Positions 216 through 18,685 of a DNA stretch of 64,000 nt are shown here, piece by piece; the first letter of the stretch is position 1, and each line of letters opens with the position of its first letter. The DNA lies in contig NZ_CADFDK010000016.1 of NCBI RefSeq assembly GCF_902832885.1, positions 62,001 to 126,000 on the forward strand, given 5' to 3'. Below the pieces are notes generated by a model. It worked only from the letters and a program-made list of their open reading frames with translations, was not told the DNA's origin and ran no database searches. A program made the translations under genes and the position numbers. Source of the stretch: Burkholderia seminalis DSM 23518 (GTDB lineage: Bacteria; Pseudomonadota; Gammaproteobacteria; Burkholderiales; Burkholderiaceae).

Positions 216-250
216 TTGCGAGTTGGACATCTAGGTGACGGAGGGCGTTG

Positions 251-721: not shown

Positions 722-1005
722 GCAAGTTGTACTTCAGTCCGATAGTCATGACTGGCGCCAGCTCAATTTGGTACCTAAGTCCGGCGAGGCAGTGAATATC
801 AAAGACCTGCTTGCGACAGAACAGCCGGTAGACGATCGCGCGAGACCCTCATCGTTTGCGTTCGGGCGAAGATCCAGAACGAACGCAAGCAAGCAGGGAG
901 TACCGGAGCGCCAGATAGATTGTTGGTCCGCGCACACACCTCCGACGTTCGATCGAGAGGGCCATCAAGGCGTTATATAAACTCCTGCTGTTGAATAGGT
1001 CACCC

Positions 1006-4266: not shown

Positions 4267-4368
4267 CGTTGCTCCACTTAAGCTGTCGGGCTCAACTATC
4301 TTCAGGTAGTTGAGCCGGATATCGTGTGACCGAAAAGGTGCTAGCGCCGCCGTGTCGGCGTCAAACTG

Positions 4369-5142
4369 CTATCTGATGACGCACTGCGAAAAATCCCGAG
4401 CGAATGCAAATCGAGTACAGCCAGCTATTACAGAAAGATTTAAAAACCTGACGCTGCTTGCGTCCGCGCGGGGCATGTCCATATTTCCGAGGAGGGAAAC
4501 CGTCGGGGATAGCGGAACATACAGTGCTTGAGGGCTATCCGGGACGAGAAACTCGCCGGCGCCTGGTTCCGCCTCCGTGACGTACCATCGTATACCCTTT
4601 AACTGAAGGTGCGTGTAGTCAATGGCACGCTGGATGTGCATTCCGGTTAGCTGCCGGCTACCCATCATGCCATTCTCGTCTATGAACAGGTAATGGTTGC
4701 TCTCCAGCCGTTCCTTTTTATCCTTTGTGATTTCATTATCTGGCGTCACACCTTTCAAAATGACTGCAGGTACAGGGTTTGCGCTGTAGTGCACGCGGTG
4801 TTTCCATAGAGCGTAGAAAGCAGTGATCGTATCGTTCTCGAGAGCTAACCATCGACGGTCCCCGTAAAGAACGAGGTTGGCGATTTTCTGAAACCGTTTC
4901 TCAATTTGCGCCATGTATCCTGACTCGGCGCGTTGGTCCCAGACACGTTTCGCACAGAACATTTCATGCTCGGCCGTAACGCGAAGACGACTTTGGGTTT
5001 CACCCAATCGGAGCACGCTTACTTTCCCGTCAAGTCCATAGAAGCGTTCGATAGATTTTCGAGGGAATATATGTTGTCGTTGTACTAAACCGTACGGATT
5101 TCCTTTCTGCACGGGTTCGGGCTTGTGTTTGCGGTATTCCAC
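4369..5142 (-). CDS. DUF4238-like protein
   Basis: A 257-residue protein. Near the N-terminus QRQHIFPRKSIERFY resembles the H-x-x-P-x-x-x-L-x-x-F opening of DUF4238 proteins. A following region with AEHEMFC and an IEKRFQKIA helix matches the general pattern of that family, whose biochemical role is unknown and whose members are often seen in variable islands. There is no signal peptide or membrane segment. It sits 102 bases upstream of the large membrane protein gene on the same strand. The family assignment is by eye and could be wrong. Confidence 0.6.
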   Translation of the reverse strand: MEYRKHKPEPVQKGNPYGLVQRQHIFPRKSIERFYGLDGKVSVLRLGETQSRLRVTAEHEMFCAKRVWDQRAESGYMAQIEKRFQKIANLVLYGDRRWLALENDTITAFYALWKHRVHYSANPVPAVILKGVTPDNEITKDKKERLESNHYLFIDENGMMGSRQLTGMHIQRAIDYTHLQLKGIRWYVTEAEPGAGEFLVPDSPQALYVPLSPTVSLLGNMDMPRADASSVRFLNLSVIAGCTRFAFARDFSQCVIR

Positions 5143-5243
5143 AGGTTCGTCCTCGTGGATATGACTAGGTTTGCCTCGGGTCGCTTGTTAACCTGCGCTT
5201 ATCGAGAGCCTCATGGCGAGCGATGGCACATACAATCCCCATG

Positions 5244-6347
5244 CTACCGTGTCGTCGCTGGCGCTCTGTTCTGAGGCTCACCATTCAAAGAGCCTTCTCT
5301 ATGTACGGCATCATTCATTGCGTCAAGGAAGGAGGAGTTGAACGGGCCTCGCATGAATAGATGCATTCCAGGAACGACAGGTGGAGGAAGCTGGAAGTGC
5401 TGTCGCATGACTTCACTGAATTGCTCGCATACCGCAAGCGTTCGATAGACGACGGAATTGATTGCGGGGCGCAAGGGTACGAGATTGTTAGGTTGACGCT
5501 CCTGATCCCGCCATATCTTCATACTCTCAAACGGTCGCAGGTGCCCTGAGATTAGGAAATCTGCATCGCCGGAAAAAATGATCTGCATCTGCGATCCGTG
5601 ATGCACTAAGTTGTCGCGTATTGTTCGGAGTTGGAGAAAGAACGGCGTCACCGCCACGTAGAAGTCGACAAGGGGCAGTGGCAGACCAAATTTTTCGACC
5701 AATTTTTCAGCAGTCGCAGGCGCCTCTTGGAACAATGCGACGGCAGCGAAAGAACCCTTCATCGGGCGCTTCGTGTTGGCAGTGCCAGTTAGCGTAACCT
5801 TTTGCCATAGCTTATTGATAACCTCTTGCAGCAAGTCGAAGAGGCTCCTGCATACAGACAATACATACTCGACCTCTGTTGCAACCATCCTCGTGATGCC
5901 CGACCCGACATTGTCCCGGGATGTGTGCAGTAGTTGAAGCTTTGCCAGCGATGCCGATAGATTCGAGATGTCATCCATCACGCCGGCAACGGCCAATTTC
6001 AGTTCAGGAAAGGACGCGTGCTGAGCGATGAAGTCCATGAACCGAAAATGTGCATCGGTTGGTGATTGAGGCTTCTCGGCGAAATAGAATCCTTCCGCAA
6101 GTTCCACAATATTCAGTTCAACCAAGGCACCAGTTGCAACGCGGGCCCATGTCCGCCATCGAGTTCCATCGTGAAAGAAGTTGCTCATCACAATGCGCCT
6201 GTCAAGGTTGGCGAGATCTACAAAGGGAATGGGCGCCGACGATGGAGTCTCGAAGACTGGATGTACATCGGGAGTTGGCTGGTTCTCGTCTATCATGGTT
6301 TCTGAAGACATCTTGGGGTTCTTTGGCAGCAAAGGAGACTCTTGCAA
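5244..6347 (-). CDS. Unknown protein with HEPN-type R-x4-H motif
   Basis: A 367-residue protein without a signal peptide or clear membrane span. Residues 244-249 read RDNLVH within a predicted helical stretch (FLQLRTIRDNLVHHG). This fits the R-x4-6-H signature of HEPN RNases, where the polar residue after Arg is commonly N or D. The proline-rich first 40 residues look disordered. HEPN domains are frequent toxins in abortive-infection and toxin-antitoxin systems, so an RNA-cleaving role is possible but unproven. It is the second gene of the four-gene minus-strand series. Confidence 0.65.
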   Translation of the reverse strand: MQESPLLPKNPKMSSETMIDENQPTPDVHPVFETPSSAPIPFVDLANLDRRIVMSNFFHDGTRWRTWARVATGALVELNIVELAEGFYFAEKPQSPTDAHFRFMDFIAQHASFPELKLAVAGVMDDISNLSASLAKLQLLHTSRDNVGSGITRMVATEVEYVLSVCRSLFDLLQEVINKLWQKVTLTGTANTKRPMKGSFAAVALFQEAPATAEKLVEKFGLPLPLVDFYVAVTPFFLQLRTIRDNLVHHGSQMQIIFSGDADFLISGHLRPFESMKIWRDQERQPNNLVPLRPAINSVVYRTLAVCEQFSEVMRQHFQLPPPVVPGMHLFMRGPFNSSFLDAMNDAVHREGSLNGEPQNRAPATTR

Positions 6348-6465
6348 TAGAAGAAGTGGACCGTGTGTCGTTCCTTGAGGAGTGTAGACATCGTCCGAAT
6401 CTCCGGCAACGAAACCGCCGCCGCAATCGATAGATACCCACCCGATGCCACAGCACGGACGGGTA

Positions 6466-7392
6466 TCAGTTTCCCCAGCCGAGTTCGGTTATGAGGAAAC
6501 CCGTTGCGTGCAGGGCAAGTTCGGCGTCCTCCTTTGACACCTCCCGAAGGTCGTAGCGCTCGCGCTCATTATCTTTTCCTCTCGGGTGAAGAAGATTGAC
6601 GGTATCAAGTGCAGCACGGATTAGCCGTTGCTCTTTTTCACCGAAATGCTTCTTGACCGCTGTGATGCAACCTCCGAGGTCTTCCTCAAGTATCGTTTTA
6701 TTTCCAGTCAGAGCATACAGCCATCGAGCGCTGACGACCGCACAAAGATTTCGACACTGGTCAACAACTGAGGTTGGGGAGTCCCTGTACGCTACCTGCA
6801 TGACACGGTCGTAGGCACTTGATATGGATTTCTGATTCTCCTCCGGAATTTTCTCCAACTTGAGAGCTGGCAGAATGCCAAACGCAGACTCTGCCCGAAG
6901 AGTAACCAGCACATCGTGACTGATTGTTTGCTCGGTCTGCAGGATTCGCCAGAGGGAGTGTGCCTGCGTATTGCCTATCGCTAGCTGAAGTCCCTCACCT
7001 CGATTGGGACACCCCAAGAGCTCAGTGCAATGGATGAACACATTTAGGTCTTTCTGTATGCGGCCGTAGTCGTTCCTCAGGCGGCTATCAGATTGTAAAT
7101 TCGGATGCGCCTCTACGAAAACGGACGTGCGATTAGTTTTACCGAATGACTGGAAGATGCGCCCACGCCTCACTCGGGAGACTGGGTCGAACGAGTCCTC
7201 CCGGAAAATCCAACGGAACGGGTCGCCTTGCATTCCGCGAGGCAATTTATCGAAATCAGCAGGTGACTCAATGAGTGTGCATTGAGAAATTATTGGCGCA
7301 GGGACGGTGAGGTGGTTAGGATTGTCGGTACCCTCATAAATGAGGCCATGGTCGTGTTCGACGCCGAGGCTGGACATGATTTTTTCCGTCAA
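6466..7392 (-). CDS. Unknown protein with Abi/HEPN-like helical C-terminus
   Basis: A 308-residue soluble protein. The C-terminal 60 residues (LLHPRGKDN, then SKEDAELALHATGFLI) read like the last helices of abortive-infection C-terminal/HEPN-type domains, but no convincing R-x4-H catalytic pair is visible. It may be a non-catalytic member, or the resemblance may be superficial. It is the first gene of the four-gene minus-strand series (1006-7392). I do not recognise the N-terminal half. Confidence 0.6.
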   Translation of the reverse strand: MTEKIMSSLGVEHDHGLIYEGTDNPNHLTVPAPIISQCTLIESPADFDKLPRGMQGDPFRWIFREDSFDPVSRVRRGRIFQSFGKTNRTSVFVEAHPNLQSDSRLRNDYGRIQKDLNVFIHCTELLGCPNRGEGLQLAIGNTQAHSLWRILQTEQTISHDVLVTLRAESAFGILPALKLEKIPEENQKSISSAYDRVMQVAYRDSPTSVVDQCRNLCAVVSARWLYALTGNKTILEEDLGGCITAVKKHFGEKEQRLIRAALDTVNLLHPRGKDNERERYDLREVSKEDAELALHATGFLITELGWGN

Positions 7393-7564
7393 AGAAACAG
7401 CGCCAATATATCGCAGGTCCGAGCCGAAGCGCGATGCCGTATATCTTCCAAGTGATGACGCAGTACGCCGGCGAGGCGAGGTTGGTCAAAGGGAGACGTC
7501 GAATCAGCTTTCGATCGGTTCCCCGGGCACATCAGCTAAGCTGATGTAATCCAAGAGGGATGAA

Positions 7565-7726
7565 ATGAGCAGAGCAAGAAGGCACTTTACTGACGAATTC
7601 AAACGGGAAGATGTGCGGCCGTGCAGAGAGCCCGGTGCACCGGGCGCAGAGATTGCCCAAGAGAAGGTATCGTCCGGGAAAGCGATGGAGGCCAGTTCGA
7701 TCTTGCTTGAGGCTGGGTCGCTTTAG
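7565..7726 (+). pseudogene. Remnant of an IS3-family transposase orfA
   Basis: The 53-codon frame starts MSRARRHFTDEFKRE and continues CREPGAPGAEIA, the helix-turn-helix opening seen in IS3-family OrfA proteins (RR-FTDEFKREAV, then G-IA). It stops after 53 residues, about half the usual length, and the DDE-encoding orfB is absent. It is therefore a decayed insertion-sequence fragment beside the Tn7-like module. Confidence 0.55.
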
Positions 7727-7915
7727 ATTCTTTCGCGTGCTGCATAGGGCCACAAGACGTCCGGCAAAAAATGTTGCATCATGCTCCTCAATTTTCACCG
7801 GTGAAAGTTGAGGAGTACCACTTCTGATGAACTGTGTAGGCCTCGATGGACATCAATATCCAATATATATCGGACTGCAAAATAAACTTGATGACGAAAA
7901 ACGAGGAGGTGTCTA

Positions 7916-7929
7916 ATGTGACATCACAT
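7916..7929. promoter_or_regulatory. 14-base palindrome ATGTGA-CA-TCACAT
   Basis: A perfect palindrome with a two-base centre in the gap left of tnsA. The half-site resembles that of Crp/Fnr proteins, but their usual six-base spacing is missing. It may be an operator or part of a transposon end. Confidence 0.25.
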
Positions 7930-7999
7930 GGCTCGACACTCAGAGCACATTTTCTCTACTGAAGTTGGTGAACGTAGGAGGCGGTATGTAGAAAAGAAA

Positions 8000-8027
8000 A
8001 AAGCCAATCACGGATGACTGGCTTTGT
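8000..8027 (-). terminator. Rho-independent terminator reading leftward, upstream of tnsA
   Basis: Arms at 8001-8010 and 8015-8024 pair with one mismatch. On the minus strand that mismatch becomes a G-U wobble, and the stem is followed by a T-rich run. This suits a transcript coming from the tnsA side and leaving leftward, although no convincing minus-strand gene lies there. It may insulate the transposon or end an antisense RNA. Confidence 0.5.
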
Positions 8028-8126
8028 TTCTTGGCTCTATGAGAGCGCGGTACTGTGAGACTGGACATCCTCAGTATCGTTCTCGAATTCGGCCGAGTCA
8101 AGCCCTTTTTGCCTCTGCATTTGCGT

Positions 8127-8155
8127 ATCGCACGCAGGTCCATATTGCGTGCGAT
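8127..8155. promoter_or_regulatory. Perfect 10-base inverted repeat upstream of tnsA
   Basis: ATCGCACGCA (8127-8136) and TGCGTGCGAT (8146-8155) are separated by nine bases, 80 bases before the preferred tnsA start. It could be an operator controlling tnsABC or a transposase-binding site. Confidence 0.45.
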
Positions 8156-8234
8156 TGATGCAAGCGCATTGGCCGTCGGCGTGCCTGATCGCCTCCTGGC
8201 GATCTGGTGGGCCGACATCGGCCGGAGACACGAG

Positions 8235-9149
8235 ATGCGAGGAACGATGACGTGGGAGAAGCTGCAGAAGTTGATTGAAGAGGGGGCGGGCCAAGGGCAC
8301 GGGGAAAGTTACAGGCCGTTCATCGAGGTTCGACGGAGGAATTCGTCACCGAATAGCAACCAGACGGTCGGTCCGCTTCCAGGCCAGAAGCGCCCATTTC
8401 ATGGGCTGGCTAGGCTCGAACGTCACATTGGAATGCTGTGCTACTGGTTAGGCGCACAGGACGTACGAGAACAGTTCCCTGTTTGGCCCTTTCCGCATTC
8501 CCACCCCTTGGCTGGCGCTGCGACCGCAGAGCAATATGAAACAGTCGTTGCACCAGGTTTGCTCGAGATTGCTGAGGACGCAGGCATAGACCACGGTGTT
8601 TACGTCGGAACAGGCATTCCCTATGTCGCCACGCTCGATGTGGTGGCGACGGTACTGAGGGAGCACGTGCCTCCGCGACTAGTCGTTTTCTCGTGCAAGC
8701 CCTATGAGGCAGTTGCCAACGCCTGTCCAACATCACGGATCCTGGAGCGACTCGAATTAGAACGACGCTACTGCCGTGCGATATCTGCTCGATATCACAT
8801 CGCGCACGATCTCGCCCTGCCGCGGCAGTTGTTTGCAAATCTCGAAGTATGTGGAACCGGGCTCGCTTGCCGAGACCGAATTTGCTCGGCGCCGCGCTTC
8901 GACGAATTTCGAGATGCCTTGATCAGAGGGATGCTTCGGAGACCACTAAGAGAGGCCGTCCGGATAGCTACGGCAAACACGGGATTTTCGAAATGCTTGG
9001 CGTGGCCGGCGTTCAGGTTGCTCGCGTGGCAGCTCGATATCGATATCGACCTAAGTGAGCCGATTGCAACGTCGAGCTTGATGGTTCGTGGGGGGCGAGC
9101 CATACACGCGCGTCTGCGGGATTCGCTTTTCGAGGGAGGTGGAAAGTGA
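8235..9149 (+). CDS. tnsA: TnsA-like transposon endonuclease
   Basis: A 304-residue restriction-endonuclease-fold protein that, in Tn7, cuts the 5' ends of the element and works in complex with TnsB. The N-terminus W-EKL, then GAGQGHG, and REQFPVWP match the TnsA N-terminal domain. Catalytic candidates in order are E62 (ARLERH), D135 (TLDVVA) and K155 (FSCKP), close to E63-D114-K132 of E. coli TnsA. The ATG at 8235 follows CCGGAGACACGAG; ATG 8247 is an alternative, and a GTG at 8055 would add 60 residues across the inverted repeat, which I consider unlikely. The stop overlaps the tnsB start (GTGA), implying coupled translation. Confidence 0.85.
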   Translation: MRGTMTWEKLQKLIEEGAGQGHGESYRPFIEVRRRNSSPNSNQTVGPLPGQKRPFHGLARLERHIGMLCYWLGAQDVREQFPVWPFPHSHPLAGAATAEQYETVVAPGLLEIAEDAGIDHGVYVGTGIPYVATLDVVATVLREHVPPRLVVFSCKPYEAVANACPTSRILERLELERRYCRAISARYHIAHDLALPRQLFANLEVCGTGLACRDRICSAPRFDEFRDALIRGMLRRPLREAVRIATANTGFSKCLAWPAFRLLAWQLDIDIDLSEPIATSSLMVRGGRAIHARLRDSLFEGGGK

Positions 9150-11416
9150 GCAGAATTCTCGAGAACAGTATTTTTCGCTTCAACGACGCGCCGTCCACAT
9201 CGTGCGGAACGTATCGAGCACTTCTTCTCAATGTCCCATGTAATCGTGTCTGGGCGATTCAAACTGCTCGCGAGGACAACCGCAAGATCACCTATCATCG
9301 CGGCCCCAAGATGTTTTCGCTAGGGCAGATCGAGCTGTCGATTGACGACGGACGTGTGGAAATTGAAACATACATCGCTCCTACCACTTGGTTGCTCTCG
9401 GACGAGCAGATCGAGGCAAGGTACGGCCGAAGCGCTGGAAGCGAAAAGTGTGCTCAACTCAGTCGCCGCGATAGAGCGTGGCACGTGATCGAGCCAATCG
9501 TCTCTCGGTACTGCCTCCACGATTTGCTGGAACTTGGCATGTTGCGAACGGCAGTTGGTGAGCGCGCATCCGAGTTGGGCGTCAAGAACAAGATCATTCT
9601 TGCGATTCTGCATCGATACTGGGCGGGTGCTAGTAATCGCAATGCCTTGTTGGGGAGTCTCAGCAACTGTGGGGGAAAAGGAAAGATCCGTTCGCAGGCT
9701 AGGAAGTTGGGCCGTCCGAACGTCGCGATTCGAAGCGATCCATCGGCGTCACCCGGGTACTTGTTGAGCGACGTTGATCGTGAGCAGTTGCAGTTTGGGT
9801 GGGAGACATTTCTACGCCCGGGAGTATCGGTTCATGCGGCCTATCTTAGAACGATGGAGGCCTTTTATCGTGCCGAGACCGAGAAACGGGGGGATGCATT
9901 GATACCGATGCTGAGACTCCCCGAGAACAGGCCGACGCTGCGCCAGTTTAGATACTGGGGGATGGGCGGTCTGCGGTCGAGAGCAGCCTCTCGGTTGCAA
10001 CTGATGGGAGGTGAGTTTGACCGGAATCTAAGAGCGCTGCCGGGGACAGCGCGAGACGGAATTCAATGTGTCGGGCAGGTGGCGTACTGCGATGCGACAA
10101 CGAACGACGTTTATCTTGTGTCTTCAGCGAGCCCCCTACTCGTTGTGGGCACAGCGAATCGGATCATGATTCGCGACGCATACACCGGAATCATCGCCGG
10201 ATTCTACTGTGGGTTCGATGCGCCGTCTGCGGAGACGGCTATGCAAGCGATCGCTCATGCAGCTCTCGACAAGATGGACTTTTGCTCGCGCTTTGGGCTT
10301 GTCGCTTCCTTCGAGGATTGGCCTGCAATAGCGTTCCAACGATACATCTGCGATAACGGCGAATTTCGAGCACAAGAATCCATACAACGCGTCGCGAATT
10401 TTGGCAGCACCTTGGAGTTTACGCCGGTGGGGCGCGCCGATCTGAAGTCTCCGGTCGAGACATATCATCATGTCCTTCATTCCGCGTTAGATCATAAGAT
10501 CCCGGGCACGACTCGCGGTAAGCGTACCGAGCGCGGGCAAAAATCGCCGGTGCTATCCGCATGTCTGACGTACTTCGAGTACGTGAGGAATTTAGTCAAG
10601 CGGATTCTTCATCACAATAACGAAGAGCGCTGCGAAAATCTACTGACCACCGAAATGCGCCGAGATAACGTCGTTCCTACGCGGATCTCAATTTACAGAT
10701 GGTGCATTGAGAACGGGTACACGGCGGGAGGCCCCCCATCGGCAGACTTGGTGAGATCGCATCTGTATCCAAAGTTGCCGGCCGTATTGACCGGATCAGG
10801 TGTGTACCTTCTACGACCTGATCGCGGACGAAAAGCTGAAGTCGTGAGAAAAGCCCGCTTCGTCGGAAAAATTCTTCTGGAGCGAGGGTTGATGGAGGAG
10901 GCGCGCAGGAATCACGTGCGGCTTGAGGTTCGCGCAGATCCCAACGATCTTCGCAAGATTTGGATAGTCCACGACGGGGTGCACGAACTCACCAACGTTG
11001 ACGATCACGATCGCCTTGCAGTGACGGAGTGGACATTGCAAGACCATCTTGCCGTACAAGATCACGATCTACTTGAGCGGCATCGAAGCAGAGGGATGTG
11101 CGAGCAGCAGGACGTAACCCTCGATGCAGAACTTTTTGCTGACGTGAGCAATGCAAAGGAAGAGAAGAAGGAGCTTATCGAGCGCAGTCGGAAGCGATTT
11201 TCTGAGAGGTCTTTGAAGTCGAACATCAGACAGAATCGAAAGTTCGAAAAGAGTATTCTGGCGAGCGTTGCTGAACCACTTTCTCGAACGGACAGCGTCC
11301 GAGAAGACACGGTGCCGCCGACGACAAGTGCGAATGGGCCCAATACCGCATCGACACAGACGTCACCGGCCTTGGAGGTGATGAGGCGATTCAACAGAAT
11401 GCGAGAAGAATCATGA
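9146..11416 (+). CDS. tnsB: TnsB-like DDE transposase
   Basis: A 756-residue transposase, slightly longer than Tn7 TnsB (702). It binds the transposon ends and performs 3'-end cleavage and strand transfer. The retroviral-integrase-type catalytic triad reads D316 (YCDATT), D403 (ICDNGEF) and E438 (SPVETYHH), with the expected spacing of about 35 residues between the last two. A basic helical N-terminal half precedes the core. The charged C-terminal tail would contact TnsC. The GTG start overlaps the tnsA stop and is preceded by GAGGGAGG. The stop overlaps the next ATG (ATGA). The triad is intact, so the protein is probably active. Confidence 0.93.
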   Translation: MSRILENSIFRFNDAPSTSCGTYRALLLNVPCNRVWAIQTAREDNRKITYHRGPKMFSLGQIELSIDDGRVEIETYIAPTTWLLSDEQIEARYGRSAGSEKCAQLSRRDRAWHVIEPIVSRYCLHDLLELGMLRTAVGERASELGVKNKIILAILHRYWAGASNRNALLGSLSNCGGKGKIRSQARKLGRPNVAIRSDPSASPGYLLSDVDREQLQFGWETFLRPGVSVHAAYLRTMEAFYRAETEKRGDALIPMLRLPENRPTLRQFRYWGMGGLRSRAASRLQLMGGEFDRNLRALPGTARDGIQCVGQVAYCDATTNDVYLVSSASPLLVVGTANRIMIRDAYTGIIAGFYCGFDAPSAETAMQAIAHAALDKMDFCSRFGLVASFEDWPAIAFQRYICDNGEFRAQESIQRVANFGSTLEFTPVGRADLKSPVETYHHVLHSALDHKIPGTTRGKRTERGQKSPVLSACLTYFEYVRNLVKRILHHNNEERCENLLTTEMRRDNVVPTRISIYRWCIENGYTAGGPPSADLVRSHLYPKLPAVLTGSGVYLLRPDRGRKAEVVRKARFVGKILLERGLMEEARRNHVRLEVRADPNDLRKIWIVHDGVHELTNVDDHDRLAVTEWTLQDHLAVQDHDLLERHRSRGMCEQQDVTLDAELFADVSNAKEEKKELIERSRKRFSERSLKSNIRQNRKFEKSILASVAEPLSRTDSVREDTVPPTTSANGPNTASTQTSPALEVMRRFNRMREES

Positions 11417-12945
11417 CTCGAGTTCATGCCGCGTCATCGTCGGAAGGTGCCGTACCTGTGAACCCGCTGTTGGAGGTACTACCGCTTCCAGTACGCTACG
11501 AAGATCTTCCGATGCTCCTGAACCACGAGCCTCTCTTGTCGGTAAGGATGCGGGATTTGCCTCTTGCCGATCGAGAACCATATGCGTCCAAGATCACTAC
11601 ACATTTCGTACCTACACCGGCAGCAGTGGATATTGCAGATGCCATATTTTCGGCAATCTGGGCAGGTTATGAGGATCGAAATCCTGCGACGAAGTCCTTC
11701 CTGAGCGAGCGAATGCAGGTGGCCAAAATGGATCCGCTCAAAGGTCTTTCGCTGCAACTGGGGAACGTAAGAAATGCGCGCGGTCTTACTATCAAAGGTA
11801 TGACGGGACTCGGAAAGTCGACGATCGTTAACCGGGTGCTCAGCCTCCTCCCACAGGTCGTCCAGCACGGTCAGAATCAGCAGTGTGGCTGGGCGTCGCA
11901 ACTGCAGTTGGTCTGGATCAAAGTAGACATGACATCGGACGGAAGCCGGCATGGCTTCCTGATGCAGATATATGCCGCTGTGGACGCTGCGTTGGGAACC
12001 GACTACTTCAGGCAATACTCGGCGAAGAAATGGTCTGTAGAAACGCACATGGTCGTTGTTGCTCAGCTGCTCTTCAATTCGTTCTGTGGTGTCCTGATAG
12101 TTGAGGAAATTCAGCTGCGCAATTTCCAAAGTGACGCGTCTCGCAATCTCATGTTGCTGTTCTTCCTTCGCCTCTGCAATCTTGGTATCCCAATCGTTCT
12201 CATTGGAAACCCGATTGGGTTCGAAGGATTCGAAGACTTCTCACAAGATGTGCGGCGTATGAGCTCCGGCGGTGCATTTGAGCTGTGGCCCGCGCCCTCG
12301 TCGAATGATGTTGAGTGGGTTGAGTTCATCGTCCCGGGCATGCTGAGATTCAATATTCTTCCGAAGCCGCCGCAGCTTGTCGACGCCGCCGAGTTGTTGT
12401 TTAGCTTTACCGGCGGCATTTGCGACTTCCTTGCGAAGCTCTTGATCCAGGCACAACTGCTGGCATTGAGATCTGGAAAGGACCACCTGAGCAATGATGA
12501 GGTGGTGGCAGCGTTTAGAAGTCCAGTGATGCGCTCGTCGCATGCCCTCATTCGCGGGCTTGTTGAGCGAGACGTCAATGCGTTGAGCAGGTTCCTTGAT
12601 GTGCCAGCATTGTCGTTTGCATCAATGTGGGAATCCGAACTTGATCCGATGAGGCCAGTAAAAGGCGGTTCTTCGTCTTTGAGCGCTGCTGCTTCTGCCA
12701 AGATGGCGCTGACACAAGGCGCAGATATCGCAAGCAAAGGTGGGCGCGCGAGATCATCTGCCAAGGCACCTCGGTTTGTGGCCGCAGCAGCGACATTTCA
12801 AGGAAAGAAGACATCGGCTGAGCGCCGCAAGCAAAAAGCGGAGGAGTTGCGAGCATCTCTGTCTCCGGAGGATGTACGAGCGGATGGACGCCAGAATGTG
12901 CTGCTTGGGAATTTCCATGAACTGAAGAAGCGGAAGGGTCCGTAG
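11413..12945 (+). CDS. tnsC: TnsC-like AAA+ transposition regulator
   Basis: A 510-residue ATPase that links the target-selecting TniQ/TnsD protein to the TnsAB transposase. Walker A is GMTGLGKST with K135. Walker B is LIVEEIQ (residues 228-234), where the usual aspartate before the glutamate is itself a glutamate (E231). A sensor-like IVLIGNP follows near residue 262. The C-terminal 120 residues are basic and Ser/Ala-rich, suited to partner binding. The ATG overlaps the tnsB stop. The protein is slightly shorter than Tn7 TnsC (555). Confidence 0.9.
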   Translation: MTRVHAASSSEGAVPVNPLLEVLPLPVRYEDLPMLLNHEPLLSVRMRDLPLADREPYASKITTHFVPTPAAVDIADAIFSAIWAGYEDRNPATKSFLSERMQVAKMDPLKGLSLQLGNVRNARGLTIKGMTGLGKSTIVNRVLSLLPQVVQHGQNQQCGWASQLQLVWIKVDMTSDGSRHGFLMQIYAAVDAALGTDYFRQYSAKKWSVETHMVVVAQLLFNSFCGVLIVEEIQLRNFQSDASRNLMLLFFLRLCNLGIPIVLIGNPIGFEGFEDFSQDVRRMSSGGAFELWPAPSSNDVEWVEFIVPGMLRFNILPKPPQLVDAAELLFSFTGGICDFLAKLLIQAQLLALRSGKDHLSNDEVVAAFRSPVMRSSHALIRGLVERDVNALSRFLDVPALSFASMWESELDPMRPVKGGSSSLSAAASAKMALTQGADIASKGGRARSSAKAPRFVAAAATFQGKKTSAERRKQKAEELRASLSPEDVRADGRQNVLLGNFHELKKRKGP

Positions 12946-12994
12946 GTTTTTGGTTTCCCGGGAAGCCAGATATGAGATTGCAAACCAAGCAGAG

Positions 12995-14443
12995 CTACAT
13001 ACGTTGTCTGCGCATTTCTTCGACGATATCGTTGAGAAGTGCTGCGGTGCGTGGCATTTTGGCTAGCTGGACAGCAAAAGGAAGTGGGCCCAGCTCGCGG
13101 AGAACCGTGCTCACAGTGATGCGTCGACCTGCGGAAAGGCTGATGCGATCGCGCTGTTCCATTGCTAGTGCATGCAACCGCGCGTCACGTTGAGGCCAAT
13201 TGACCCACGTGTCGTAGCGACGATTGGGTGGTAGCGGTTTACGACAATTCTTTTCGAGCCAATCCGGATCGTGGCGATATAGCCACCGCCATGGTCCGCC
13301 AACATCTCGAGCTATCTGCGATCGTGATGCGCCGGGATGTTCAGTGAGGTAGCGGAGCACGGATGTGACGGCTTCTTGCCGGCGACGGTGTCTTTCCGAT
13401 GGCGATACTAGCCGCCTTTGTATCGATGACGGACGATAGGTGGCTGACGGAGGTTGTGTCTCGCATTGTTGTGTTGGGGACATGGTGCTCTCCCACTCAT
13501 ATACCGATATGAAATGCTCCCACGTGCCAAACAGCATTCCAATGAGAACGAGGTTTGGCAATGTGTTAGACGTTTCTCGCTTTGAGCGCAGTATGTCGAC
13601 AAGCGAGACTATTTCTCGTGATAGTTCGGGGCGACAGAGTTGGACACCACGAGGTAGCGAACTCACATGTAGTCTTAGCTTCGATTCGAGTTCGGCGAGC
13701 CGCAGTCGTCCGGATCTTGAGAGCAACTGCCTCTCTTTGAGAGCATGCCGGTACGTGTGATACAGAACATGCTGGTCGAACTGCCCGGGAAGCCGGCATT
13801 GAAGCGCGGCAGCGGCTAGCTTCGCAAACTGCAGTGTGCTGCTGCTGGATTTGTTCTGGGTGTCGGCAGAGCGCGTCCACGTCAAATCACTCGGTAGAAA
13901 AAGCGTTGTTTGCTTACCTTGTCGCATCGACTTCGCAGTTATCAACCCGACTCGATGTGCCGGGCAAACAGCAACTCCTGGAAGTTGCGGTGTCCGGTGC
14001 CAATATGCGGCGCCTGCTGATCCAACATCTTCCTCCATGCATTCTGGGCAGGCCTTGATCGGAAGGCTCGCCCCAACCGCGCACGCCTGCAATCCCAATC
14101 GCCGCTTCAGCGACGCAACCGTTCCGCTGCAAATCTGTTCGACAGCGCTTTGTGCGAATTTCGGTTCGCGAAATCGAACAAAAAAGGGCAAGCAAGTTGC
14201 AGCGATCGCGATGTCCACGGGGCTCGATAGAGGCGGTGGCATCAGCCTTGCCAGGGTGGACAGTCCGTGAGGGTAATCGAAGATCAGTGCCGCTCTTCTG
14301 TTGCCAAGTAGTAAGCGACTCAGATCCGTTGACGTTGCTTGAGAAGTCAGCAGCATTGTGCGCGAGAGCAAGCTGAACAACGTCTCGTCATATTGGAGAA
14401 GCGGCAGATTTAGGACATGACCAGAATCTTGATAGAGGCGCAT
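12995..14443 (-). CDS. tnsD: TnsD-like target-site selector (TniQ domain plus C-terminal DNA-binding region)
   Basis: A 482-residue TniQ-family protein. The N-terminal zinc knuckle reads C132-x2-C135 and C160-x2-H163, around AAYWHRTPQLPG. The C-terminal part (SQIARDVGGPWRWLYRHD, then DTWVNWPQRD) matches the extra region of TnsD proteins that recognises a fixed chromosomal attachment site. It converges on tnsC, with 49 bases between stops, and is divergent from the xre gene. Tn7 TnsD has 508 residues. The chromosomal site it recognises cannot be deduced here. Confidence 0.88.
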   Translation of the reverse strand: MRLYQDSGHVLNLPLLQYDETLFSLLSRTMLLTSQATSTDLSRLLLGNRRAALIFDYPHGLSTLARLMPPPLSSPVDIAIAATCLPFFVRFREPKFAQSAVEQICSGTVASLKRRLGLQACAVGASLPIKACPECMEEDVGSAGAAYWHRTPQLPGVAVCPAHRVGLITAKSMRQGKQTTLFLPSDLTWTRSADTQNKSSSSTLQFAKLAAAALQCRLPGQFDQHVLYHTYRHALKERQLLSRSGRLRLAELESKLRLHVSSLPRGVQLCRPELSREIVSLVDILRSKRETSNTLPNLVLIGMLFGTWEHFISVYEWESTMSPTQQCETQPPSATYRPSSIQRRLVSPSERHRRRQEAVTSVLRYLTEHPGASRSQIARDVGGPWRWLYRHDPDWLEKNCRKPLPPNRRYDTWVNWPQRDARLHALAMEQRDRISLSAGRRITVSTVLRELGPLPFAVQLAKMPRTAALLNDIVEEMRRQRM

Positions 14444-14506
14444 AACGCACTCCTGCGTTGAACTCAGATGCTCGCGCTATCTGCCGCAACAAGCAACGCT
14501 AGGAGC

Positions 14507-14524
14507 TTGCATAAAAATATGCAA
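14507..14524. promoter_or_regulatory. Palindromic operator candidate between tnsD-like and xre
   Basis: Perfect seven-base arms TTGCATA and TATGCAA surround AAAA, 17 bases before the xre start and 63 bases before the divergent tnsD-like start. It is the obvious candidate site for the adjacent Xre protein, which would let it control both target selectors. Confidence 0.6.
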
Positions 14525-14541
14525 AAGCGCATAGTCGTTCA

Positions 14542-14898
14542 ATGGACTCCGAAACTGAACAGTTACTTACATGGTTACGTACTGCCGTAGCGGATCGCCG
14601 ATTGACGCAAGCGGATGTTGCCCAGAAGACCGGCGTCAACCAGTCTCAAATCAGTCGGATATTGCGTGGTCACAACAAGCGAACCTCTGAAAACGTCGCC
14701 GTACTGTGCTCGTTCGCGCGGCACGAGATTCAGTCGATGCTTGGCGCGGGAGAGGTGGGTTTGGAGGCCGAAGCGCAAGGGATACTTCGGAATTTAATGA
14801 ACGGAAGCGATCACGAGCGCCGGCTCGTCGTCGACGTTTTGAGACGACTCAAGGTGCTGCGTGATACCTGGAGGGCTGCTGATGATTCCTCAAAGTGA
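14542..14898 (+). CDS. Xre-family helix-turn-helix regulator
   Basis: A 118-residue Cro/C1-type DNA-binding protein. Residues about 20-42 (LTQADVAQKTG-VNQSQISRIL) form the helix-turn-helix. A C-terminal helical part probably dimerises. The gene overlaps the following tniQ by 17 bases and is divergent from the tnsD-like gene. A palindrome directly upstream suggests autoregulation. In type I-F3 CRISPR-associated transposons an Xre gene stands before tniQ; here the pair occurs without cas genes. Function as a repressor of target selection is inferred. Confidence 0.85.
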   Translation: MDSETEQLLTWLRTAVADRRLTQADVAQKTGVNQSQISRILRGHNKRTSENVAVLCSFARHEIQSMLGAGEVGLEAEAQGILRNLMNGSDHERRLVVDVLRRLKVLRDTWRAADDSSK

Positions 14899-15805
14899 CC
14901 GACCGCTGTTTGTGCCGACCATCCCGGATGGCGTGACCTTCTTTTCGCTTGTTGCTGTTACGCATGCTCTGTCGGGCAATACGTCAAAATCCGTAACGAG
15001 CTTCCAGCTGTTCGGCTGCGCGACTCCGTTTCCTGCGGCACCCTTCGCGCAGTGCCTTTACCGAGCGCAAGCAAAAAGATGTATCCCAGAGAGCAACTCG
15101 TTGCTCGAGCGTGGAACGTTGTTCGGCTTCTACTCATCGGCGATGTCGATGCGCCAAGCGCACGAGTGGCGAATGACGATACGGCCGAAGCGGTTTCAAG
15201 GACGTAATACGAGGAGTTTCATCCCGACTTCTTCTCAGAGAAACTTGGCCAAGTACAACATGTATCGTTGTACGGCGTGCATGGAAGTGGATGTGTGCAG
15301 ATACGGCCTGGCGTATTGGCATACGATCCACCAGGTTCCGGGGATACATCATTGTCCAATCCACGGCCTTCCTCTCCTGGGAGCCTGTAACGCTTGCGGC
15401 CGAAGTCAGGGATCTAACAGTGACTGGCATCTCCCTCAACCGAGTTGCCCGCACTGCGGTAATGGCCAGTTCGATTCACGATCTACCATCCTGACGCGCG
15501 GTTATCTACGTCACTTGGACTTAACTTCTGAGCTCTTTTCGAGTAACCGCCGGGCGATATCGCCTACCCGGCGGATGGCGTTGTACCGTCGAGCATTTGC
15601 GACGGAGCGAAAACGTTATCCGGAACGCATAATTCGGTCGCTGCTGCGAGATTGGGAGTGCACGTCACTGCGTCAACTTTCGAACGTGGTTGGGGCTGAG
15701 ATTACACCCGCGTTCGTAGAGCGGGCGATAACTGGCAATGACGGTGGTGTGAATCCGATTGGTCAGTTGGTGCTGGTGGCATTAGCCCGTGCGTCCGTTT
15801 CTTGA
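14882..15805 (+). CDS. tniQ: Second, shorter TniQ-family protein
   Basis: A 307-residue TniQ protein with two zinc knuckles: C130-x2-C133 with C158-x2-H161, and C169-x2-C172 with C189-x2-C192. Between them lies the family core RYGLAYWHTIHQVPGIHHCP. It lacks the long TnsD-type C-terminal region of the convergent gene, so it may select targets together with a partner rather than by binding a fixed site. The ATG at 14882 follows GGAGGG; a GTG at 14861 is less likely. It overlaps xre, so both are co-expressed. No cas gene follows: the next 180 bases are non-coding. Confidence 0.87.
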   Translation: MIPQSDRPLFVPTIPDGVTFFSLVAVTHALSGNTSKSVTSFQLFGCATPFPAAPFAQCLYRAQAKRCIPESNSLLERGTLFGFYSSAMSMRQAHEWRMTIRPKRFQGRNTRSFIPTSSQRNLAKYNMYRCTACMEVDVCRYGLAYWHTIHQVPGIHHCPIHGLPLLGACNACGRSQGSNSDWHLPQPSCPHCGNGQFDSRSTILTRGYLRHLDLTSELFSSNRRAISPTRRMALYRRAFATERKRYPERIIRSLLRDWECTSLRQLSNVVGAEITPAFVERAITGNDGGVNPIGQLVLVALARASVS

Positions 15806-15889
15806 CAGGAGTGAGAAGTAGAGCTGAATGGACGTCGCCCCATTGGGCTTTTGAGTGCGGATCTCATGTGCTAACTGTGACGTTGACCG

Positions 15890-15912
15890 ATAGTACCTGA
15901 CCACAATAGTAC
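15890..15912. repeat. Pair of ATAGTAC direct repeats after tniQ
   Basis: Copies start at 15890 and 15906, 16 bases apart, followed by further short repeated pieces (ACTGAGCA, ACTCAGTGAGCA). They could be protein-binding sites or part of a transposon end, but the copy number is too small to be sure. Confidence 0.25.
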
Positions 15913-15982
15913 TGAGCAGGTTGTAGCAGTTACAACTCAGTGAGCACGAGATGGCAAGATCTGAGTAGACTATGGTGGATAC

Positions 15983-16267
15983 ATGCGACTAGCCGCGGAC
16001 CGCGGAGCATGCTTCGATATTTCTCGCAATTACAGATTTGGCTACCCCATCACCGACAGTTTTCATGACGCTCACTGGAGCGATGAGCCTGTCTTGCTAT
16101 CAGAGTTGCCTGATCTCTACCATGTGTATGTCATCTGTGACGCGGCCGGGCAACTCAGCGTCGCTATCGATAAGTCGCGAGAGATTACTGGCGCGGCTCG
16201 CCCAGTGGACGCTCAGGTTCCGTCATTTCCACCGTGGAGACAGTTCCGCGCGCGGTCACGACCTTGA
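15983..16267 (+). CDS. Small hypothetical protein
   Basis: A possible 94-residue protein (MRLAADRG start) with a plausible mixed composition, including ELPDLYHVYVICDA. The ribosome site is weak (GGTGG). It overlaps the convergent 16185-16877 gene by 83 bases, so one of the two frames may be spurious at its end. I do not recognise it. Confidence 0.35.
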   Translation: MRLAADRGACFDISRNYRFGYPITDSFHDAHWSDEPVLLSELPDLYHVYVICDAAGQLSVAIDKSREITGAARPVDAQVPSFPPWRQFRARSRP

Positions 16268-16877
16268 ATAAGGTGTCTGCGTAGCTAATCGGGTTTCGGT
16301 AGGCCCAGGCATCGACACCGTTCGCAATTGGTTCAAGGTCGTTGCCCATTAGGTCGGTTCGCTCTTGGCGCAATTCCTGAAGGAGTTCACTGACCTTTAA
16401 GGTTTTGGGCTTTTGTTCCCCGCCCTGTGCAGTCAGTAGCTTCCAGACCAAAGGGGCAACCTTTTCGCTAATCATTGTTGGGGCGCGCACGATGACAGTT
16501 CGTGCCTCACCCCCGTCAAGCATGATCGGCAGGGAGATGTGTTGGCCGTCTACGGTTTCAAGGTTATCAAACTTACCGCCAACGAAGGTGCGCTTACCGT
16601 GCACAATGTTAGATAAGTCCTGGTTCACAATAGAGAGACGGTCCTCGCTCTGATTGGCAATCGTGACTTTCCAGCACAGACCGATTATCCCCATTTTGGG
16701 GCCGCCGCTATATTGCACGGCACACTCACCGGTTGGGATGGCTGTCATGGTGAGTGCTTCGCGCTTTGCTTCGTTAGCCTGCCACGAAAAGAACGCGGAT
16801 GCGCTACCGACAATTAACGCGAGCGAAGCGACGATCGAGTTGATCCATTCGTGCAGGTTTGTGCTTTTTGATGCCAT
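16185..16877 (-). CDS. Membrane-anchored protein of unknown function
   Basis: A 230-residue protein with one N-terminal hydrophobic segment (about residues 12-35, IVASLALIVGSASAFFSW) followed by a soluble domain with beta-rich character. No catalytic motif is evident. The ATG has no clear ribosome site. Base composition is close to the Tn7-like module rather than to the chromosome on the right. It is probably cargo of the island. Confidence 0.6.
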   Translation of the reverse strand: MASKSTNLHEWINSIVASLALIVGSASAFFSWQANEAKREALTMTAIPTGECAVQYSGGPKMGIIGLCWKVTIANQSEDRLSIVNQDLSNIVHGKRTFVGGKFDNLETVDGQHISLPIMLDGGEARTVIVRAPTMISEKVAPLVWKLLTAQGGEQKPKTLKVSELLQELRQERTDLMGNDLEPIANGVDAWAYRNPISYADTLFKVVTARGTVSTVEMTEPERPLGEPRQ

Positions 16878-17689
16878 TTATATAGACGGCGCATGAGCCG
16901 CTTGTCTAGAACGTTGAGAGATTGTATCGGCAAGAAGAAACCCGCTCGATATCTTCGCTGCTCGAACGCCGGGCTGGCACTGTGGCGTTGACCGAGACGC
17001 CGGGAGGGCGGTGACGGCCATCAACGGTCGTTCAGAGCGATGGTGCCGGCGACCAGTCTTAGACTGGCGGCTGTCCGTCCCACGATGCTTGCGAGCGCCA
17101 GCAGACGAATTCTGCGGTCATTGCGATTGCGCTCTGAACGGGACCGTCGATTCGGAATCGCGAAGCGTCTGGGGCGGGACGCCGGGATGGTTGCCGGAAG
17201 ACGCCACTGGCGACGTCTACCCAAAGTCGGCTGAAAGGTTACCGCCATTCTTTTCCACGAACAGGTGGCGGGCGCGGCGGAGAGTTCGTCAGATGGTGCA
17301 TGGTGTTGGTCGAACTCACGGCGTCTTGAGGCCGCTGTCCAGCGAGACAGTCGCGTTGGCGCAAGGCCGTTTTCGTTACTGTCCCTTAGTACGCAGCGCA
17401 AAGGGGCGAGGCCGCCAGGCCGTGCAAAATTCGAACAAAACCCCCGGTACTCTGTATAGACGGTCGCATTCGCTTCCCGAAGGTGACTTCAGTTCACGGA
17501 GGCGCAGGATAGCCCCTCCCGTGAACTAAGCTAAGCATCGCATGAACGGCGCGCGACGAGCATAAGTTATTGCTGCATAAAGCTTTTCAAGATATTCTGG
17601 CTTGTAGATCCTGCACCTATATCTAGATACACTTTCCTAAAGTCGATAAATTCCGGTTCATCAGCTCAACGTCCGAAAGGAAGGACCAG
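16878..17689. other. Long non-coding stretch with inverted repeats before the Gabija-like operon
   Basis: About 810 bases where I see no convincing gene. It contains CCAGTCT-T-AGACTGG (17053-17067) and a nine-base inverted repeat AGTTCACGG/CCGTGAACT (17491-17499 and 17519-17527). The G+C rises here relative to the left, so this may be a junction between two pieces of the island. Confidence 0.5.
17570..17598 (+). promoter_or_regulatory. Possible sigma-70 promoter of the Gabija-like operon
   Basis: TTGCTG (17570-17575) and TATTCT (17593-17598) with a 17-base spacer, about 90 bases upstream of the first start codon. No other pair in the gap fits as well. Confidence 0.4.
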
Positions 17690-17842
17690 ATGAACAAGGA
17701 GTTGCTGCTTTTCTGCTTGGATTGGTTGTCGGCAAACGCGCCGTCGCTGGTCCAGTTGCTCACCGCGCTGGTGCCCGTCATGGCGCTTGGGGTCGCCGGG
17801 TACGCGCTTTACCTCGCGTCGAAGAAGGGGGGCCAGAAGTGA
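17690..17842 (+). CDS. Small single-span membrane peptide, 50 residues
   Basis: The reading frame gives a 50-residue peptide beginning MNKELLLFCLDWL. It has one hydrophobic span of about 24 residues (LVQLLTALVPVMALGVAGYA and onward) and a basic end SKKGGQK. A strong ribosome site (AAAGGAAGG) precedes the ATG. Its stop overlaps the GTG start of the next gene (GTGA), so it should be translated with it. Small one-span proteins can act as toxins, sensors or effectors; which applies here is unknown. Confidence 0.6.
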   Translation: MNKELLLFCLDWLSANAPSLVQLLTALVPVMALGVAGYALYLASKKGGQK

Positions 17843-18579
17843 TCCGATCCTCGCAATGGCATCGACTGCCCTCCGCACCTGTGCTCGCGGCTCTGCCTGA
17901 GATGAAATGGAGCACTGCTGACAATGCGAGGCCTGCAGCTGAAACGTCGGCGCTGATGTTGTTTGTTGCGCTCAACTTCATGGCGACGGCATGGCTCGAC
18001 GAGCAAGGGCGGTACGTGGCAGTCGCCGAAGGGACGTACGTTGATCTTGGCGAGGCGACCGGCTTATCGCGTGCGCTGATCTCGGCAGGACTGCAACGCC
18101 TGGTGGCGCTCGGTCTGATTGCGCCTGAGGGTTCGCATCAGAAGCGCCGCTATAAGATCAATTGGCCGGAGGAGCACCGCTTCTTCAAGTTGCCCTGCCA
18201 TGCGATCGTGGCGGGCAATGTGATCAAGCCGTTCGCGCATTTCACAATGCGCTCGAAGCACGAACTGCACGCTATGAAGCTTTACCTCTACTTCGCGGCG
18301 GTTCGTAGCAACCACGCCTATTTTTCGATGGCATCGTACGAAACCATCTCCGAGCGGACTGGCATCTCCGAGCGGGACATCCGCAAGGCGATCAGTCTGC
18401 TGATCGGCACCGGGCTGCTGGTCGGAATCAACCGCGACCACAGCCACGTCTCGACTGTGAATGAGCCAAACAAGTACTACCTGACGGGCTATCAGGCGCT
18501 GGTGCAACAGAAGAGCGGCACCCCCGACGGAGGGACCGCCGTCACGCCGCCATCGACGGTCGCAGTTGCCATTACCTAG
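17839..18579 (+). CDS. Double winged-helix DNA-binding protein
   Basis: A 246-residue protein with two winged-helix-like regions. One lies near YVDLGEATGLSRALISAGLQ, the other near SYETISERTGISERDIRKAI. Each is followed by a wing-like strand pair. The layout resembles replication-initiator or plasmid-type regulators. The GTG start at 17839 overlaps the stop of the membrane peptide, which decides against a longer frame beginning at 17722. It lies 106 bases upstream of the nuclease gene and probably controls or serves the operon; its actual role is not known. Confidence 0.65.
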   Translation: MIRSSQWHRLPSAPVLAALPEMKWSTADNARPAAETSALMLFVALNFMATAWLDEQGRYVAVAEGTYVDLGEATGLSRALISAGLQRLVALGLIAPEGSHQKRRYKINWPEEHRFFKLPCHAIVAGNVIKPFAHFTMRSKHELHAMKLYLYFAAVRSNHAYFSMASYETISERTGISERDIRKAISLLIGTGLLVGINRDHSHVSTVNEPNKYYLTGYQALVQQKSGTPDGGTAVTPPSTVAVAIT

Positions 18580-18685
18580 CGTGAGTGGGTGCACCGAGCA
18601 GGATTCCCGCGGCGGCTTCGTTCTGCCAACAGAAGAAGGAAACATCGCGGGCATGGCGTGCATGGCGGACAGGACGGAGTATGGG

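What the first reader, a model, noticed from the sequence alone, without database searches (positions are those of the whole stretch)
8235..15805. Tn7-like transposon core with two different TniQ proteins and an Xre regulator but no CRISPR
Tn7 has one TnsD for a fixed site and TnsE for other DNA. Here a TnsD-like TniQ (482 residues) and a short TniQ (307 residues) coexist, the second in an overlapping operon with Xre. Xre-TniQ order is known from type I-F3 CRISPR-associated transposons and TnsD plus TniQ from type I-B ones, yet no cas gene or repeat array is visible. The short TniQ may use another partner, or it may represent a form before or after loss of a CRISPR system.
Basis: partly seen in the sequence, partly recalled or inferred. 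Interest (0 to 1): 0.8.

Follow-up and report, generated by a model that had tools for sequence, protein, structure and literature searches.

The report
sodB-homing Tn7-like transposon, two TniQ selectors
This is a complete Tn7-like jumping element parked just behind the host gene sodB; its puzzling short TniQ protein is most likely a second target-finding protein that has lost its DNA-binding tail, and nothing found here ties it to CRISPR.

Summary
The genes are as described: TnsA-TnsB-TnsC, a divergent 482-aa TnsD, and an overlapping Xre-TniQ pair (307 aa). I found both ends: a 23,156-bp element with TGT/ACA termini, TnsB-site repeats and a 5-bp duplication (CCGGC), starting 957 bp before the window, 7 bp after the sodB stop codon, and ending at 22199. 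No cas gene or repeat array was found in the element; Cas1, Csy3 and DevR models find nothing in the genome. In both relatives where the second TniQ is readable it is full length (514 and 498 aa) with a conserved C-terminal half; the window protein stops about where the TniQ core ends. The TnsABC tree makes this a loss, moderately supported. A palindrome between tnsD and xre is nearly unchanged in all three, so Xre looks like a repressor of both selectors. Verdict: a non-CRISPR dual TniQ-TnsD transposon with an apparently unreported attachment site and a second selector reduced to its core. Whether that core still works, with a partner or as a modulator, is open.

The parts
1..22199 (.). Tn7-like element: the part inside the window. 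The sodB-side end lies 957 bp before the window (contig C16:61044); whole element 23,156 bp
   Evidence: Termini TGTTCCGTCACAATAAAG ... CTTTATTGTCACGGGACA, 5-bp duplication CCGGC on both sides; uninterrupted sodB sites in two genomes of the genus
8235..9149 (+). TnsA endonuclease-like (304 aa)
   Evidence: Pfam Tn7_TnsA-like_N E=0.0014, below cut-off; 53-61% identity to relatives in the same position
9146..11416 (+). TnsB transposase (756 aa)
   Evidence: PADLOC TnsB E=5.3e-7; D316, D403, E438; 53-54% to two relatives
11413..12945 (+). TnsC AAA+ regulator (510 aa)
   Evidence: Pfam AAA_22 E=9.3e-9, TniB below cut-off; Walker A; 54-57% to two relatives
12995..14443 (-). TnsD, target selector inferred to home to sodB (482 aa)
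   Evidence: Pfam TnsD 69.8 bits and TniQ 37.5 bits; 46-47% identity to the TnsD of the two sodB-inserted relatives in which it is readable
14507..14524 (.). Palindrome TTGCATA-N4-TATGCAA between tnsD and xre: probable Xre operator
   Evidence: The conserved block of an otherwise poorly conserved ~100-bp gap in 3 of 3 elements; 0 mismatches in window and P. fynbosensis, 1 in G051
14542..14898 (+). Xre/Cro-type HTH regulator (118 aa)
   Evidence: Pfam HTH_3 E=1.4e-6; 45-47% identity to Xre at the same place in two relatives
14882..15805 (+). TniQ2: core-only second TniQ (307 aa), start overlaps xre by 17 bp; the C-terminal ~190 aa of its relatives are absent
   Evidence: Alignment with 514- and 498-aa relatives; C-terminal part not found elsewhere in the genome; CxxC/CPxH and two further CxxC kept
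18566..20413 (+). Cargo: GajA of a Gabija-type anti-phage system (ORF limits)
   Evidence: PADLOC GajA E=1.6e-155
20205..21800 (+). Cargo: GajB helicase of Gabija (ORF limits; true start probably further downstream)
   Evidence: PADLOC GajB E=9.5e-119, match from residue 74
22152..22199 (-). Left end: two TnsB-site repeats (22152-22168, 22174-22190) and terminus ...GGGACA at 22199
   Evidence: 3 matches with up to 3 mismatches in the window against 0.01 expected, two of them here; terminus
22200..22204 (.). Target-site duplication CCGGC, followed by the displaced native sodB terminator

Best explanation
A complete Tn7-like transposon that homes to the 3' end of sodB. TnsD recognises sodB and, through TnsC, directs TnsA+TnsB to insert the element 6-7 bp after the stop codon (position shown; the role of TnsD inferred). 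The end nearest sodB carries TnsB sites and then its own terminator-like hairpin, so sodB transcription would still be ended (anatomy shown; function inferred). Xre binds the palindrome between tnsD and xre and represses both selectors, perhaps until the element enters a new cell (inferred). TniQ2 was originally a second selector with its own DNA-binding tail, for an unknown other target (inferred). In this copy it lacks that C-terminal half (shown by comparison) and keeps only the core that in Tn7-like elements contacts TnsC, so it can probably no longer choose a target alone and is a vestige or a weak modulator (inferred).
For: Ends and duplications: own element CCGGC, G051 CCCAG, P. fynbosensis ATTGC. 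Distance from the sodB stop 7, 6, 6 and 7 bp in 4 of 4 elements (own, G051, P. fynbosensis, R. pickettii; of R. pickettii only the sodB-side end is readable) and 11 bp in a distant one. sodB followed directly by its terminator in G118 and G669. Counterparts of TniQ2 are 514 and 498 aa and 45.6% identical to each other over 489 residues; the window protein matches them over the core only. The C-terminal domain is not elsewhere in the genome (best E 0.65). The TnsABC tree joins the window with P. fynbosensis (92/93) and G051 with R. pickettii (100/99), so a long ancestor with one loss is simplest. The modelled P. fynbosensis TniQ2 is helical beyond residue 317 (mean pLDDT 65.7), with a weak HTH_23 match at 340-369 (E 0.013, below cut-off). 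Window-only changes: 45 of 104 sites in the TniQ2 core against 216 of 686 in the other five proteins (Fisher p=0.019), as under relaxed constraint. Palindrome.
Against: The window TniQ2 is an open frame with its CxxC/CPxH motifs kept, so it is not obviously dead. A more distant sodB element (G798) has a 327-aa TniQ in the same Xre-coupled place, so a core-sized TniQ may be useful there; that TniQ is not in the TniQ2 clade (long branch). The window-P. fynbosensis join is below the starred threshold, and R. pickettii's TniQ2 is unread. Similarity may run a few codons past the stop. At up to 3 mismatches the palindrome alone is not rare (68 of 200 shuffles of the G051 locus have a match); its weight rests on its conserved place, and it was not found in G798. 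TnsD's role, the operator and any second target are untested.
Confidence: 0.72

Rival explanations
1. The short TniQ2 is a working adaptor: its core contacts TnsC while a separate protein (Xre itself, a cargo protein or a host factor) supplies DNA binding, in the way TnsF or Cascade do for other small TniQ proteins.
For: It is core-sized, which Faure et al. (PMC10293859, section 11 read) suggest is a hallmark of elements with additional selectors; its start overlaps the gene of an HTH protein; zinc-ligand-like motifs are kept; a second, distant sodB element pairs a related Xre with a 327-aa TniQ. In PMC11406308 the legend of a figure of TniQ domain organisations has XRE among its abbreviations (passage only).
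Against: No gene other than Xre is shared beside it. Xre is also present where TniQ2 has its own C-terminal part, and the palindrome lies in a divergent promoter gap, as for a repressor. The core has more window-only changes than its neighbours.
Confidence: 0.17
2. The short TniQ2 is a modulator without targeting function: it competes with TnsD for TnsC and damps sodB insertion or blocks further elements.
For: A TnsC-contacting core without a DNA-binding tail could do this; the frame is intact and lies across a shared promoter gap from tnsD.
Against: No direct evidence; I know of no such role for a TniQ (recalled).
Confidence: 0.08
3. CRISPR relic or precursor: TniQ2 derives from, or led to, a CRISPR-associated TniQ, and cas genes were lost or not yet gained.
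For: TniQ2 matches PADLOC's TniQ_IB model (36.2 bits), somewhat better than the resident TnsD does (31.7 bits), and the I-F TniQ model (29 bits).
Against: TnsD scores higher than TniQ2 on the I-F model (42.1 bits), and the full-length TniQ2 proteins of the relatives match both models at 26-32 bits, so the matches show only TniQ kinship. No cas gene or array was found in the own element or in the scanned parts of two relatives; no Cas1, Csy3 or DevR in the genome. The full-length counterparts carry a long C-terminal part that CAST TniQ proteins largely lack (Faure et al., section 10).
Confidence: 0.03

Closest known systems
Dual TniQ-TnsD Tn7-like transposons (Faure et al. 2023, PMC10293859; sections 8, 10 and 11 read)
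   Same: TnsABC core with one TnsD-like protein over 400 aa and a second TniQ-family protein; 998 dual loci are reported there, and the branch of Tn7017 is said mostly to lack Cascade
   Different: Here the second selector gene is divergent from tnsD and coupled to Xre with a conserved palindrome, is long in two relatives but core-only in the window, and is only distantly related to its TnsD, which that paper says is seen in only a few dual loci
Tn7 (TnsABCDE, glmS)
   Same: TGT/ACA ends, 5-bp duplication, TnsB-site repeats, end next to tnsA facing the target gene, insertion behind a conserved gene (Tn7 features partly recalled); the closest solved relative of TnsD and TniQ2 by profile is Tn7 TnsD (E 4.7e-16 and 0.0056)
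   Different: Target is sodB, not glmS; no TnsE recognised among the scanned ORFs; a second TniQ with Xre instead
[quoted passage not shown]
   Same: An Xre-family regulator goes with the transposition genes
   Different: No Cascade genes or array found here; the review says the two I-F3 branches co-opted their Xre proteins independently; full-length TniQ2 counterparts have their own C-terminal part
Tn6022 with TniQ-TnsF (PMC10293859, section 11)
   Same: A small TniQ next to another gene in an operon
   Different: No further gene shared beside TniQ2; target sodB instead of comM

Membership tests
Tn7-like transposon | TnsA + TnsB (DDE) + TnsC (AAA+) operon | tested here: met
   (TnsA Pfam match below cut-off)
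Tn7-like transposon | TGT...ACA termini, repeated TnsB sites, 5-bp target duplication | tested here: met
   the repeats are called TnsB sites by likeness and place, binding untested
Tn7-like transposon | TniQ/TnsD protein and insertion behind a conserved gene | tested here: met
   TnsD; sodB insertion
Dual TniQ-TnsD transposon (non-CRISPR) | Two TniQ-family proteins in one element | tested here: met
CRISPR-associated transposon (I-F3, I-B, V-K) | Cas effector genes in the element | tested here: not met
   17 main ORFs of the element without a cas match; Csy3, DevR and Cas1 absent from the genome (they ring in 1, 2 and 9 of 14 control genomes); Cas12k was covered only by the PADLOC scans
CRISPR-associated transposon (I-F3, I-B, V-K) | CRISPR array | tested here: not met
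   a lone or very diverged repeat could be missed
CRISPR-associated transposon (I-F3, I-B, V-K) | TniQ falls in a CAST TniQ clade | not tested
   No sequence recognised as a CAST TniQ was obtained
Tn6022-type TniQ-TnsF | TnsF next to TniQ | tested here: not met
   No shared neighbour beside TniQ2 in the relatives; no recombinase match among the ORFs scanned with Pfam; no TnsF sequence was compared directly
Xre as transcriptional repressor of the selectors | Conserved operator at the regulated promoter | tested here: inconclusive
   Conserved palindrome found; binding and promoters not tested

The most novel reading that the evidence does not exclude
A Tn7-like transposon converted a DNA-binding second selector into a core-only TniQ that now works with a protein partner in trans (Xre or a host factor). 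This would be the partner-dependent state from which CRISPR-guided TniQ could evolve, caught without any CRISPR found. A core-sized TniQ stands in the same Xre-coupled position in a second, distant sodB element (G798), so the state may have arisen more than once.
Probability: 0.15. Interest if true: 0.75.

Novelty: new variant of a known kind. Interest (0 to 1): 0.42.

Why it matters
It adds sodB as an apparently unreported attachment site, with a terminator-like hairpin carried in the transposon end. It also gives a within-family case of a long TniQ/TnsD-type selector next to a core-only form of the same gene, with no CRISPR found. That makes one step testable: whether core-only TniQ arises by loss of DNA-binding domains and can then recruit a partner. 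Faure et al. describe TniQ and TnsD as two ends of a continuum and infer that most dual loci arose by duplication in place; here the two selectors are only distantly related.

Tried and rejected
Tried without result: a genome-contig scan with TniQ2 (no relative); viral contigs with TnsC (one weak hit, not used); plasmid blastn of 15600-17800 (none); Rfam on window 1-22600 (none); PHROGs for the two selectors (none); an AlphaFold model of the window TniQ2 (mean pLDDT 40.7, not used). The Foldseek search with the P. fynbosensis TniQ2 model has best hits to Tn7 TnsD (E 0.0067) and then an I-B CAST TniQ; no match reached E 0.001, so it decides nothing. CAST TniQ references were sought through plasmid records and class-wide genomes; what came back was read, from gene order and by eye, as other Tn7-like elements.

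Rejected: TniQ2 as a recent duplicate of the resident TnsD (separate 100/100 clades); a simple frameshift or base error as the cause of the short TniQ2 (the C-terminal ~190 aa are not found behind it or elsewhere; similarity runs at most about 16 weak codons past the stop and 4); G798's TniQ as a direct counterpart of TniQ2 (not in its clade, though on a long branch); the 94-aa and 230-aa ORFs behind TniQ2 as conserved partners (no match in three relatives). A conserved ~115-bp block upstream of tnsA was first taken for the end of the element; the end lies at sodB.

Rows dropped: R. pickettii was left out of the TniQ2, TnsD, Xre and rate comparisons because its contig ends in tnsC; the second part of the G1147 TniQ was left out of the tree because the gene is frameshifted; of the TniQ-like hits only some were put into the trees (7 loci, none apart from the own genome's second element).
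Full report
1. Observation. The window is contig C16:62001-126000 of an unnamed 7.97-Mb genome. Pfam, PADLOC and motif checks support the assignments, TnsA only weakly. Xre and TniQ overlap by 17 bp.

2. The element. Comparing the stretch upstream of tnsA with relatives led to sodB, 1 kb before the window. Directly behind the sodB stop codon lie a TGT terminus and three repeats like CAATAAAGTTTGGAAA; at window 22152-22199 are inverted copies ending in ACA. The five bases CCGGC flank both ends. The element is C16:61044-84199, 23,156 bp. In two genomes of the same genus, G118 and G669, sodB is followed directly by its terminator and then by sequence that, by eye, matches what lies beyond window 22204 here.

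3. Relatives. TnsC searched in 299 genomes of the family matched 20 at E<=1e-20, the own genome included; two others are close: G051 (54%) and G121 (57%, contig ends in the gene). Of 65 genomes of the genus, three matched TnsB at E<=1e-30: the own and two at 29-30% identity. Of 369 genomes of the class none but the own matched TnsC at E<=1e-40. A TnsB profile in 399 genomes of the order matched two others at E<=1e-100, G798 and G1147. A TniQ2 profile matched 14 of 398 family genomes at E<=1e-10, but only the own genome and G051 better than 1e-21; in the own genome that match runs four codons past the stop, over two TGA.

4. Attachment site. G051 (47,116 bp, duplication CCCAG) and P. fynbosensis (30,861 bp, ATTGC) are delimited on both sides; R. 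pickettii only at the sodB side. The element starts 7, 6, 6 and 7 bp after the sodB stop in the own genome, G051, P. fynbosensis and R. pickettii. G798 also starts behind sodB, 11 bp after the stop (its other end was not found). G1147 showed no sodB match in the 36 kb fetched. All five sodB-side ends carry a terminator-like hairpin right after the TnsB sites; in the three elements whose far end is known it resembles the native sodB terminator that the insertion pushes away. The conserved TnsD (46-47% identical between window and two relatives) is the natural candidate for sodB recognition; that is inference.

5. The second TniQ. G051 and P. fynbosensis have the same order: TnsABC, divergent TnsD, Xre, TniQ2. 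Their TniQ2 proteins are 514 and 498 aa and align with each other over 489 residues at 45.6%. The window protein aligns with them at 39-41%, over about the first 300 residues. Behind its stop at most about 16 weakly similar codons can be aligned, and the best match of the C-terminal part in the whole genome has E 0.65. The missing part is helical in a model of the P. fynbosensis protein (mean pLDDT 65.7), with a weak HTH_23 match below cut-off. So the window protein ends about where the TniQ core ends. In a tree of 22 TniQ-family cores, TniQ2 and TnsD of these elements form two separate 100/100 clades and are not recent duplicates (same in the 18-row tree).

6. Direction of change. On TnsABC the window joins P. 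fynbosensis (92/93) and G051 joins R. pickettii (100/99). With a homologous C-terminus in both P. fynbosensis and G051, one loss in the window lineage is simplest. The first join is below the starred level, and R. pickettii's TniQ2 is unread. Window-only changes are 45 of 104 sites (sites where exactly one of three sequences differs) in TniQ2 and 216 of 686 in TnsA, B, C, D and Xre pooled (Fisher p=0.019), which hints at relaxed constraint; it is one modest test on three sequences. Against a dead gene: the frame is open and the CxxC, CPxH and two more CxxC motifs are kept.

7. Xre. In the ~100-bp gap between tnsD and xre the one clearly conserved block is TTGCATAnnAATATGCAAA. As TTGCATA-N4-TATGCAA it is perfect in the window and P. 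fynbosensis and has one mismatch in G051. By itself a match with up to 3 mismatches is not rare (0.4-0.7 expected per locus in those calls); the weight rests on its place and conservation. A palindrome at a divergent promoter next to an HTH gene is what a repressor's operator looks like (general knowledge), and Xre would then control both selectors. The review PMC11406308 (passages) says the I-F3 branches co-opted Xre regulators independently, so an Xre beside TniQ need not be a CRISPR signature. G798 has a related Xre (53% over 62 aa to that of P. fynbosensis) but no such palindrome near it.

8. CRISPR. No cas gene was seen among 17 main ORFs of the own element (PADLOC; 16 of them also Pfam), in 10 scanned P. 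fynbosensis cargo proteins or in 9 scanned G051 cargo proteins (one is a reverse transcriptase whose third-best model is an RT-type Cas1_IIIb, its best a defence RT). Repeat searches show no array in the own element, in the G051 element or in most of the P. fynbosensis element, only two-copy pairs and the TnsB sites; the last 3.7 kb of P. fynbosensis was not covered. G798 was checked for repeats only. Cas1, Csy3 and DevR models found nothing in the genome. PADLOC's CAST TniQ models match TniQ2 at 36.2 (I-B) and 29 bits (I-F) and the resident TnsD at 31.7 and 42.1 bits: general TniQ kinship. A tree with CAST TniQ sequences could not be made because none was obtained.

9. Partner search. Translated comparison of the window element's ORFs of 50 aa or more with the G051, P. 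fynbosensis and (incomplete) G798 elements at E<=1e-4 finds only TnsA, B, C, D, Xre and TniQ shared by all. Window and P. fynbosensis also share an exoribonuclease-like cargo gene. So no partner other than Xre travels with TniQ2.

10. Print. Searches for Tn7-like + sodB (2 papers), Tn7-like + superoxide dismutase + attachment site, TnsD + superoxide dismutase + transposon and TniQ + Xre + transposon gave no paper that, from its listing, describes this. The held texts of PMC8649781, PMC11406308 and PMC10702557 do not contain 'superoxide' (passages, and section 5 of the first). The text of PMC10293859 has no 'Xre' or 'Burkholderia'. The library is open-access only and supplements were not readable, so 'unreported' is provisional.

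11. Verdict. An ordinary Tn7-like core, an apparently new home (sodB), two old and only distantly related selectors, and a second selector trimmed to its core in this copy. The CRISPR reading is not supported; the partner reading stays open at low probability.

Noticed in passing
L005:19044-19160 (just before the window) and the sodB-side ends of four relatives: All five sodB-side ends carry a terminator-like hairpin directly after the TnsB sites; in the three elements with a known far end it resembles the sodB terminator displaced by the insertion.
   Followed up: partly
window 248-721; L037:7946-8416; G1147:C7:346788-347303 (L108): An exoribonuclease-like (Rv2179c-like) cargo gene in the window element and next to tnsA in P. 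fynbosensis (59% identical); a similar-looking ORF lies beside TnsD in G1147 (by eye).
   Followed up: partly
G000:C22:35699-38315 (L007:14699-17315): A second Tn7-like element in the same genome with two adjacent TniQ proteins (464 and 419 aa), of a different Tn7-like branch.
   Followed up: partly
L110 (G798:C27:26399-34637): A distant sodB-inserted element with the same layout (HTH, TnsABC, divergent TnsD, Xre) but a 327-aa TniQ from outside the TniQ2 clade.
   Followed up: partly
L038:10127-11131 (Azonexus hydrophilus plasmid): A 334-aa unnamed protein overlaps the start of tnsD by 4 bp in a more distant Tn7-like element; by eye it is not TniQ-like.
   Followed up: no
L029:4709-5905 and 7276-9129 (G051 element): Cargo of the G051 relative includes a defence-type reverse transcriptase and an OLD/Gabija-like ATPase.
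   Followed up: no
window 17722-18579: Cargo ORF (285 aa) with winged-helix matches to replication initiation proteins, just upstream of Gabija.
   Followed up: no
window 1006-4266, 4369-5142, 5244-6347, 6466-7392: Four cargo ORFs (1086, 257, 367, 308 aa) without any Pfam match or PADLOC match.
   Followed up: no
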